A stretch of 64,000 nucleotides of DNA. It comes from Ascidia mentula (lineage: Eukaryota; Chordata; Ascidiacea; Phlebobranchia; Ascidiidae). The stretch spans positions 4,097,001 to 4,161,000 of the forward strand of contig OX387199.1 in NCBI GenBank assembly GCA_947561715.1, in the 5' to 3' direction. The notes beneath the pieces were generated by a model that did not search any database, had not been told where the DNA came from, and saw only the letters and a list, made by a program, of their open reading frames with translations. The position numbers and the translations under genes were made by a program. Of the stretch, positions 36,601-39,229 are shown one piece after another (the first letter of the stretch is position 1; every line of letters starts with the position of its first letter).

Positions 36601-39229
36601 GCTTGGCATGGACCAAATGGGCACCGGTGACCACTCGAAGTCGAGTTCTGACGAAATCGTCGAGATCAACGGACAGTTTGTTCGTCGAGATGAGAAAATA
36701 CTAATTGAACGTGGTGGGAAGTTCGAACTGGTCGAAGCCAGCGAACTCAAGGCAATCCTTCCACCTGTACAGAATGGCAACGGTAACGGTCATTCTGTGG
36801 CTTTGGTAGTCAACGATCCTCAATCCAAAGCGCGGCAATCAAGTTTGCCGCCAGTAAACGGCCGACCCAAGTCTGCTCCTGTGAGGTCTTACAAGCCAAG
36901 ACCGCCTTCATCAAACCGTCCAGTTTCGGCCTCAGAGCCGCAAACTTACAGAAGAAAGGTTGGAAAATGATTTTCTCTGTCGGCAAATACTTTCTGTTGA
37001 CCGCTTCTCGTTGCCCAAGTTGTTCACTAAAAGGACGCTTGCCTAATAAACAACGTAGTTTATATGTAATGTTACCCGTGTGTCCTATGGCTGGGACAGT
37101 GACACAGACTATACATTACGTCATATTGTAGGCAAACCGTATTTCTCAAGCCTGTTGACTCGGTGATTGATTTCCCACAAGCTTTAAGCTCATAGTAAAA
37201 GGGAAATACTTTGGTTTGCCGAGAAAATGTTATATTTAACGGCACTGTTTTGGCCATAATTTAACAAGTTTTTTTATATCGACATTTCGTTTAGTTTGTG
37301 TTGAGACTTCCTTAATGAGTTATTCATAAGTCACAAAGTTTTGACATTCGAAAAACGTTAATTTTTAGAACGAACGCCCATTTTCCTACTCCCCTGAAAT
37401 GAAGAAGATCCTGAAGAAGCAGCTGGAAGCAAAGAAGGAAAAAGAAAAAGAAGACGAAAAACGAAGAACTGCGGAGGAGAGGGCAGCTCGCGAAGAGGCT
37501 GACGATGCGTGGAGAGCTTGGGTGGAGAGGAAGAACAAGGACATCCGGGAACAGAAGAAGATATATAGGGAAACGGAACAAAAAAAGGAGCTGGCCAATA
37601 GGAGGGTGAGGATAATATTTTTTATTGCGCTTTAACCAATGAGATTTTTAAACAAACAAGGTTTCTAAACTTGTTTCTATGAAAAGCAATGTGGAGCCAA
37701 TAATATGAATTTGTGACCTAAAAGGTCTCATCAGTGCAGCTGGTGTGACTATCAAACGACTTTGCTGATCAAACGGCCAAGCAAAGACTTCCACTTTGTG
37801 GTGACTATACAATCACCGTCATCCGTTGGGCGCCAAACTAGGTGCAACCTTACGGAGCAACCAGCTGCACTGATGAGACCTTTTTAGATCGAAACAGTGG
37901 CCATCTGTCTGCAGCTTATACACAAATTGTTTCTATGAAGGCTGTCTGTCACACCATTTCGACTCAGTAGGAGTTAATATGTCCAAATCTGCATGTTTTG
38001 TACATAAATCCGTTATTCTGACTACGTTCTTCTGTATAAAATAAAACATTGCAAACTTTTGTGTTTTCTTTTGGCGCCAAGATACTCCAATAAGAGATTA
38101 CACCACAACCATTGTGGCCTGCAATTATTGCACGCCCAGACAGTCTGCTTATTGTCCGGGCAATATTTTTCTGTGGTAATAAACGCCTTTAACTTGGATG
38201 TGCTGGATGTTGTTCAGGATCCCAACGAGGCTGAGACAGCTTACAAGGATTGGTGGAGAGCTAAATCAGTGCAGATCAAGCAGGAGCGCTTGTCCTTGCA
38301 ACAGAGACAGATTGAACAAGACGAAGGCTGGTTTTTGAGGTAATTGAACAACTTCTTTTAATCAAATTTTCTCCGTTGCTGGCTTAGATGACGTTTGGGG
38401 TGATTGAATTAGGCATAAAATTATTTCGGACAGTTTTGAAATTTGTGTTCGTCTGATTTGTCTCTTAGATTTACAAATGGTTTTCCGCCGTTGACGAATA
38501 GCTAGATACCAAAGACATATGCTGGATAATCTGTTAATCTTTTTCGGGATATGTCCATATGTCATCGTTGGCGTCGCTGCGTTCGCTATATTAAGATTTT
38601 AAATCAAATAAACGACATCGCTCATTTTATGCGATATTGATTGTAAATCACGTCAGTGTAGCGTGTTTGTGTATTGTTTAATGGTGCCTGTCTCAGCTAC
38701 TGCTTTAACGTTTTGAATTTCTGTGTTTTGTGTGAGCATTCAGCTTAAATCACTAAGCTTTTCAACGTACGTTGAACTTTTAGTTCCCAAATCTTATTAC
38801 ACTTGCGAGTCGGTAAAATTTCAAAACAATTTTACAGGCCGATTATTTCATAAAACTTAAGTAAACAAGACAATAGTGGAGAATACCTAATAAAGCAAAA
38901 GTATGCTTTTCGCGTCAAAATAATTCCATTTATTGTGAACTGCTTTGGAGGACCTTTAAAGAATGAACACTGCATCAAACCACAACTTGTGCAAATAACT
39001 TGCATTTCATCATTTTCTTGACAGAGAGCGCACGGAGTGCAACAAGGCGTACCGCCAGTGGCTCCGCAAAAAGAACGAGGCCTCGCGCAAAGAGCGTGAA
39101 ATGGAAAAAGCGATGAGAAAAAATTCCCGCCGCGAAGCGAGACAGATGAGGCGAGCTCAGAAACTTCTCGACTCGATTCGTGAAGCTCAACAGATGAAAT
39201 ACGTCGAATATTACGGCTACAGGTTTTAG
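33693..39229 (+). CDS. CCDC181: Coiled-coil domain-containing protein 181, complete
   Basis: Microtubule-binding protein of sperm flagella and motile cilia in mammals, reported to bind HOOK1. Exons: 33693-33788, 34320-34419, 34507-34563, 34744-34892, 36217-36362, 36592-36958, 37369-37605, 38218-38339, 39025-39229. They sum to 1,479 bases, 492 residues (human 509), and every phase agrees. Residues 14-24 (EDWEKDLDWLI) match human DDFEKDLEWLI. RERKVLFKPKLIDFEAPP matches RERKLKFKDQLVDLEVPP. ILIERGGKFELVEASEL with ILPPV matches ILVERDGKFELLNLQDI with FLPPI. The C-terminal half is a long charged coiled-coil with three repeats of the AxxxWxxxK type (AWRAWVERK, AYKDWWRAK, AYRQWLRKK), as in human. Exon 2 encodes a run of about 14 serines, and exon 5 another. 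The ATG at 33693 is chosen because the homology starts just after it. Intron 7 carries the hammerhead motif. Confidence 0.94.
37719..37916. repeat. Small inverted repeat in CCDC181 intron 7
   Basis: The left arm (37719-37745) is the reverse complement of the right arm (37860-37887): both contain AGCTGCACTGATGAGACC on one strand or the other. About 115 bases lie between. The right arm continues into a complete hammerhead fold. The left arm keeps stem I, CUGAUGA and a perfect GACC/GGUC stem II on the minus strand, but then diverges and lacks GAAA and a cleavage site. No coding sequence is present. Confidence 0.85.
37863..37916 (+). ncRNA. Type I hammerhead ribozyme motif
   Basis: A self-cleaving RNA fold that can be read directly. 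Stem I is AGCUGCA (37863-37869) with UGCAGCU (37910-37916), seven perfect pairs. The core CUGAUGA is at 37870-37876. Stem II is GACC (37877-37880) with GAUC (37887-37890), one C-A mismatch, loop UUUUUA. GAAA is at 37891-37894. Stem III is ACAG (37894-37897) with CUGU (37905-37908), loop UGGCCAU. C17 is at 37909, so the site is GUC and cleavage is expected after 37909. Stem I is the open one, which defines type I. It lies in sense in CCDC181 intron 7. Hammerheads are known from introns and from Penelope-like and SINE-like retroelements; which class this belongs to cannot be told. Activity is inferred, not shown. Confidence 0.85.
38770..38870 (+). repeat. Dispersed repeat pair, copy 1
   Basis: Resembles 40330-40430 in the same orientation: AGTTCCCAAATCTT then CACTTGCGAGTCGG, against AGTTCCAACTTTTT then CACTTGCGAACCGG, each followed by a TTTTAAAACAA-like and an ACGGCC-like block. 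The openings resemble hAT-type ends, but no target duplication was found. One copy is in CCDC181 intron 8 and the other past the gene. Confidence 0.5.

What the first reader, a model, noticed from the sequence alone, without database searches (positions are those of the whole stretch)
37863..37916. Complete hammerhead ribozyme fold in a CCDC181 intron
Seen in sequence: CUGAUGA and GAAA core, seven-pair stem I, stem II with one mismatch, four-pair stem III and a GUC site, all in correct order and register. Established: type I hammerheads occur in introns and in Penelope-like and SINE-like retroelements. Inference: the intron RNA may cut itself after 37909. A chance match to 7 + 4 + 3 pairs plus 11 fixed bases is very unlikely.
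Basis: partly seen in the sequence, partly recalled or inferred. Interest (0 to 1): 0.88.

Follow-up and report, generated by a model that had tools for sequence, protein, structure and literature searches.

The report
Ribozyme retroelement inserted in an intron
The hammerhead-shaped RNA in this intron is one worn end of a small mobile element that is repeated through this animal's genome, and the way its copies are inserted points to Penelope-type retrotransposons as the machinery that moves it.

Summary
The hammerhead motif is really at 37863-37916, every listed part in register, but stem II is damaged and no Rfam model reaches threshold. It is not an intron-specific ribozyme: it is the right arm of a 243-bp insertion (37684-37926) with a 13-bp target duplication, a copy of a 285-bp tandem element whose intact copies carry a better hammerhead, that is, an animal retrozyme. 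A strict hammerhead pattern has 1,236 matches in this genome, reversed control 0. The new part is the insertion anatomy. In a sample along one contig 24 of 54 loci are 5'-to-5' inverted pairs of arms, 3' ends outward; duplications are mostly 12-14 bp; in 45 of 49 two-ended inserts exactly one end carries a ~30-nt tail. Ten of ten inverted Penelope-like (PLE) insertions opened in the same genome show the same duplication and exactly one tail. PLE machinery therefore most likely moves these retrozymes, priming from both ends of a break, one at each of two adjacent start sites. PLEs were proposed as mobilisers before; this footprint and the one-tail rule I found in none of the papers I could search. 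The window copy is probably a weak or dead ribozyme; CCDC181 is not confirmed.

The parts
37606..38217 (+). Likely host intron holding the insertion (GT at 37606, AG at 38217, phase 0)
   Evidence: Letters and open frames ending and starting there; inference, no transcript seen
37671..37683 (.). Left copy of the 13-bp target-site duplication TTGTTTCTATGAA
   Evidence: Direct repeat
37684..37709 (-). Tail of the left arm (unit positions about 26 to 1)
   Evidence: BLAST of the 285-bp unit: unit 1-32 on 37678-37709 minus, overlapping the duplication by a few bases
37710..37863 (-). Left arm, unit 249 down to 100, with about 30 nt of the unit (about 250-279: GAAA, stem III, cut site) missing near 37715
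37728..37734 (-). CTGATGA core of the broken left hammerhead
   Evidence: L001 1535 minus
37860..37863 (.). 5'-to-5' joint of the two arms; 4 nt fit either arm
37860..37926 (+). Right arm, unit 220-285, untailed, ends TTATACACAAA
37863..37916 (+). Type I hammerhead arrangement; predicted cut between 37909 and 37910; stem II carries a mismatch
37927..37939 (.). Right copy of the target-site duplication

Best explanation
The motif is the 3' end of an old, partly deleted copy of a non-autonomous hammerhead retroelement (animal retrozyme, 285-bp unit, often tandem). Steps: (1) tandem copies are transcribed, hammerheads can cut the RNA to units, and units are ligated into circles or stay as multimers (inferred from the published retrozyme cycle). 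(2) A Penelope-like reverse transcriptase/endonuclease recognises the RNA just 3' of the hammerhead, where two start sites lie about 30 nt apart, and cuts both target strands about 12 nt apart (duplication shown, enzyme inferred). (3) Both target 3' ends are extended on the RNA, one starting at the upstream site and the other at the downstream site (shown as exactly one tailed end; the two enzymes or two sites of one dimer are inferred). (4) The two cDNAs are joined 5' to 5' through microhomology or short filler, giving inverted arms with a hammerhead at each outer end (structure shown). Since the arms run through the hammerhead cut site, the template was circular or uncut. In the window copy the left hammerhead is broken and the right one weakened, so strong self-cleavage of the intron is unlikely.
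For: Dispersed 285-bp tandem unit with hammerhead. Target duplications: 12 bp or more in 24 of 30 loci of set A against 4 of 870 mismatched pairs; 11 bp or more in 25 of 53 loci of set B against 2 of 600. Exactly one tailed end in 25 of 26 and 20 of 23 two-ended loci. Joints with at least 2 nt shared in 22 of 43 against 146 of 583 simulated. Arms of a locus share private variants: 22 against a mean of 5.5, maximum 14 in 1,000 shuffles, 36 loci. Ten PLE insertions in the same genome, chosen as inverted pairs: 10 of 10 with a 12-15-bp repeat and exactly one longer end. GIY-YIG neighbours within 8 kb: 22 diverging, 0 converging, 14 same strand. Two PLE frames with RVT_1 and GIY-YIG. An anole PLE enzyme cuts and extends both strands and starts at two adjacent internal sites (PMC11167929).
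Against: No PLE in this genome was found to share the retrozyme's tail or hammerhead sequence: BLAST of the unit against three PLEs gave only one 25-nt match at E 0.73. No expression, circle or cleavage data. L017 has two tails and no duplication; L032 is unresolved. 29 of 54 set B loci show one arm only by script. Script counts untailed ends from unit 264 on, and in L007 and L010 the untailed end stops at 270 and 267, short of the usual 281-285. 14 of 43 joints have filler, and their mean overlap (-0.3) is below the simulated mean (1.04). Rfam and energy folding do not favour the hammerhead.
Confidence: 0.75

Rival explanations
1. The hammerhead retroelement is real but moved by a LINE-type enzyme; the inverted copies are ordinary twin priming.
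For: Twin priming (recalled, L1) also uses both ends of the break and gives inverted 5' parts, duplications of this length and microhomology (compare).
Against: Both outer ends lie at the same two fixed sites, one each, and autonomous PLEs in the same genome do exactly this. No LINE of this genome was examined.
Confidence: 0.13
2. The hammerhead was taken over by the host: it cuts this intron and regulates the gene's mRNA.
For: Sense orientation within the likely intron and all core bases kept.
Against: Damaged stem II relative to intact copies, weak predicted fold, broken partner arm; the motif occurs 1,236 times in the genome. No relative of the intron was available for comparison.
Confidence: 0.03
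3. A DNA transposon of the MITE kind with terminal inverted repeats; the hammerhead resemblance is incidental.
For: 25-nt perfect inverted repeat around the window copy and a target duplication.
Against: Head-to-tail 285-bp arrays within insertions and arm lengths and joints that differ at nearly every locus, one-sided tails and one-armed copies.
Confidence: 0.02
4. Chance hammerhead-like sequence in an unrelated repeat.
For: Sub-threshold Rfam scores, competing folds, no covariation.
Against: Complete core in three-stem order in many copies; 0 reversed-pattern matches; 285-bp tandem arrays of the retrozyme kind.
Confidence: 0.05

Closest known systems
Non-LTR (animal) retrozymes with type I hammerheads (Cervera and de la Pena 2020, PMC7229834, parts 1-4 of 6 read)
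   Same: Type I hammerhead in tandem units of some hundred bp (published 170-400 nt RNAs), dispersed, no protein in the unit, target duplications longer than 4 bp, co-occurrence with PLEs.
   Different: Inverted two-armed insertions with one tail are not described there ('inverted' 0 hits in its text); expression and circles untested here; stem III here is 4 pairs with a 7-nt loop.
Endonuclease-containing Penelope-like elements (Adineta vaga, PMC3846280, passages; anole PAc, PMC11167929, parts 1-2 of 4)
   Same: Tandem and head-to-head copies, an optional tail of about 31 bp at one inverted pLTR, short target duplications, hammerhead next to the start sites, both strands extended.
   Different: The window element codes for no enzyme. 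In vitro PAc showed no start-site difference between strands; here each two-ended insertion uses one of each. Duplications here are about 12 bp, in Adineta 8-10 bp.
Rfam RAGATH-1-hammerhead (RF03152) and Hammerhead_3 (RF00008)
   Same: Core CUGAUGA...CGAAAC...GUC aligns.
   Different: Scores far below the gathering cut-offs.

Membership tests
Type I hammerhead ribozyme | Conserved core bases and three stems in type I order | tested here: met
   stem II of the window copy has one mismatch
Type I hammerhead ribozyme | Covariance-model score over the Rfam cut-off | tested here: not met
   intact copies in L006 also below
Type I hammerhead ribozyme | Covariation of stems | tested here: inconclusive
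   Stem II of 37 variants, 131 of 148 paired against shuffled 130.3
Type I hammerhead ribozyme | Mg2+-dependent self-cleavage | not testable with these tools
   Needs a bench assay
Animal (non-LTR) retrozyme | Hammerhead in short tandem units of a few hundred bp | tested here: met
   285-bp arrays in L006 and L024; the window copy itself is less than one unit per arm
Animal (non-LTR) retrozyme | Target duplication longer than 4 bp, no LTR | tested here: met
   LTR features not searched for beyond the unit
Animal (non-LTR) retrozyme | Circular RNA in tissue | not testable with these tools
   No RNA data
Insertion by PLE machinery | Head-to-head copies with a tail on one end and a short target duplication | tested here: met
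   Retrozymes; PLEs of the same genome
Insertion by PLE machinery | Shared start-site or tail sequence with a PLE of the genome | tested here: inconclusive
   No match to three PLEs beyond E 0.73; other PLE families not examined
Autonomous Penelope-like element | Reverse transcriptase and GIY-YIG frame in the element | tested here: not met
   The 285-bp unit is far too short; PLE frames here are 801-953 aa
MITE | Fixed ends and fixed internal structure | tested here: not met
   Arms and joints vary

The most novel reading that the evidence does not exclude
PLE integration is a two-ended reaction by design: an enzyme dimer sits on one circular or multimeric RNA and extends each side of a 12-nt staggered break from a different one of two adjacent start sites, which forces exactly one tail per insertion and makes the inverted copies. 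Retrozymes are the smallest RNAs that exploit this, and the hammerhead serves to make the circle that both polymerases copy.
Probability: 0.45. Interest if true: 0.8.

Novelty: new variant of a known kind. Interest (0 to 1): 0.64.

Why it matters
Which enzyme moves animal retrozymes is open: the papers seen call PLEs strong or likely candidates, mainly from co-occurrence and shared hammerheads (PMC7229834; PMC7761336). A shared insertion footprint in one genome is a more direct link and can be tested with a purified enzyme. The one-tail rule also limits how PLEs can integrate: in vitro the anole enzyme showed no start-site difference between strands, whereas in this genome each two-ended insertion uses one of each, which suggests one RNA shared by two extending ends.

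Tried and rejected
Constant total arm length in L001-L030 (sums mostly 310-340) suggested joints at positions paired in a rod-like RNA; set B gives sums from about 205 to 457, so it came from a query that was itself an inverted joint. Re-copying of ready-made inverted elements: joints differ at nearly every locus; one joint, L031/L032, is shared. Stem II covariation: uninformative. Conservation along the unit: not used, since set B was picked by the hammerhead pattern. A tail arm ending near the cut site (L094): one case, not used. Host-gene identity by Pfam and PDB: nothing usable. RF00163 in the own genome: no match, and its control genomes rang nowhere, so it says nothing. The MFE fold of the circular unit does not show the hammerhead.

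Sampling limits: set A (L001-L030; 28 distinct) came from a query holding an inverted joint. Set B is the first 100 listed of 1,236 places, all on contig C1: the first 30 as L031-L060, then 39 loci L069-L107 plus L108 (other end of L070). Left out of set B: 18 listed places with other stem III or loop letters (two of them lie in L064 and L065) and the array that is L018. Duplicate loci were dropped as named in the scripts. The ten PLE insertions were picked because their GIY-YIG matches diverge, so their inversion is by choice; their duplications had no mismatched control, and that of the second array contains a T run. The 150 GIY-YIG matches are the scored part of 382 candidates.

Full report
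What is there. The hammerhead at 37863-37916 is as described. The same letters, in better condition, recur in the genome: BLAST with 261 bp of the window gave 148 matches from the 40 scored of 1,927 candidates, and a strict hammerhead pattern gave 634 + 602 matches with none for the reversed pattern. Intact copies read AGCUGCA CUGAUGA GACC UUUUA GGUC GAA ACAG UGGCCAU CUGU C UGCAGCU; the window copy has one more U in loop II and GAUC for GGUC. Nothing else in the window matches the unit.

The unit. L006 and L024 hold head-to-tail arrays of 285 bp with one hammerhead per unit. I set the unit's end at TTATACACAAA, where many insertions stop; what follows (unit 1 to about 32) is the tail.

Insertion anatomy. 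Laid on the unit, 27 of the 28 distinct loci among L001-L030 have arms on both strands with their 3' ends outward. Exact direct repeats of 12 bp or more flank 24 of 30 loci, against 4 of 870 mismatched pairs, which I take to be the two duplicated pairs in the set; 22 of 28 without duplicates. Since that query held an inverted joint, I took a second sample along contig C1. There 24 of 54 distinct loci are two-armed by script, 29 one-armed and L049 is odd; some of the one-armed ones keep a few nt of tail at the other end (L087, L088, L090, L098). Duplications of 11 bp or more flank 25 of 53, against 2 of 600 mismatched pairs.

The one-tail rule. By script exactly one end is tailed in 25 of 26 two-ended loci of set A and 20 of 23 of set B; L070, left out of that count, is untailed on the left and tailed on the right in L108. 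Of the four misses, L040 and L086 show a diverged or internally deleted tail when read by eye, L032 stays unresolved, and L017 has two tails and no duplication. 45 of 49 against an even chance has p 4e-10, a figure that treats loci as independent. An untailed end was scored from unit 264 on; L007 (270) and L010 (267) stop short of the usual 281-285.

Joints and template. Joints differ from locus to locus. In 22 of 43 joints at least 2 nt fit either arm, against 146 of 583 simulated; over joints without filler (29 against 503) p 6e-7; 14 of 43 have filler of 1-18 nt. The arms of one locus share private variants more than arms of different loci (22 against mean 5.5, maximum 14 of 1,000; 36 loci), as expected if one RNA or one kind of RNA served both; subfamilies could add to this. 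In some searches the untailed arms that reach unit 274 or beyond start at unit 259 or lower, so they cross the hammerhead cut site (268/269), and some arms exceed one unit: the template was circular or an uncut multimer.

The PLE link. GIY-YIG matches abound (150 scored of 382 candidates). Frames of 892 and 801 aa in L066 and L068 have RVT_1 and GIY-YIG; the 953-aa frame in L067 has RVT_1 just under its cut-off and no GIY-YIG at E 0.001, though one search scored 23 bits there. Minimal hammerhead-like motifs lie upstream of these frames (by eye). Both ends of four PLE arrays (the fourth read) and of six more insertions of the L068 family carry a 12-15-bp repeat and exactly one longer end, by 38-45 nt where measured in the L066 and L068 families, 73 nt in L067, and a tail of about 33 nt read by eye in the fourth array: 10 of 10. 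These were chosen as inverted pairs. Neighbouring GIY-YIG matches within 8 kb diverge in 22 cases, converge in 0, run the same way in 14.

Reading. PLE inserts with inverted pLTRs, an optional tail on one of them and 8-10-bp duplications are described in a rotifer (PMC3846280, passages), and an anole PLE enzyme cuts and extends both strands and starts at two adjacent internal sites (PMC11167929, parts 1 and 2 of 4). The retrozyme insertions here carry the same marks, so PLE machinery is the best candidate. That PLEs may move animal retrozymes is already in print as a proposal (PMC7229834, parts 1-4 of 6; PMC7761336; PMC8969392; PMC11722881; the last three passages only). I met no report of inverted retrozyme insertions or of a strict one-tail rule in searches, of whose papers I opened only those named; the library is open-licence only, and two PLE papers likely to bear on it were not held, so novelty is provisional. 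The one tunicate hammerhead report met is nine type I loci in Didemnum (PMC8704543, one passage).

The window copy. Its left hammerhead lost its 3' half; its right one has a weakened stem II, with a hammerhead fold at -8.7 against a -14.4 optimum. It may cut slowly or not at all. Nothing here shows an effect on the host gene. Species and gene name were not established.

Noticed in passing
L031 (about 1721) and L032 (about 1302): Two loci 10 kb apart share the same inverted joint (unit 31/252) with different flanks and mirrored tails: one ready-made inverted element may have been copied, or it is a coincidence.
   Followed up: partly
L067 756-800: PLE-like element with a 953-aa frame has a minimal hammerhead-like motif (CTGATGATGCCGTTTTAGGCGAAA) about 165 bp upstream of its open frame.
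   Followed up: no
L058-L060 and further places on C1 listed: Other hammerhead subfamilies with different loops (for example CTGATGAGACCTGGTCGAAACAGTGTGTACACC), so several retrozyme families may coexist.
   Followed up: no
L040-L046: The same two-armed insertion sits in six copies of a larger duplicated stretch on C1, a natural series for watching hammerhead decay.
   Followed up: no
L094 591-605: A tail arm whose cDNA ends at unit 270, about the hammerhead cut site: possibly copied from a cut RNA end.
   Followed up: no
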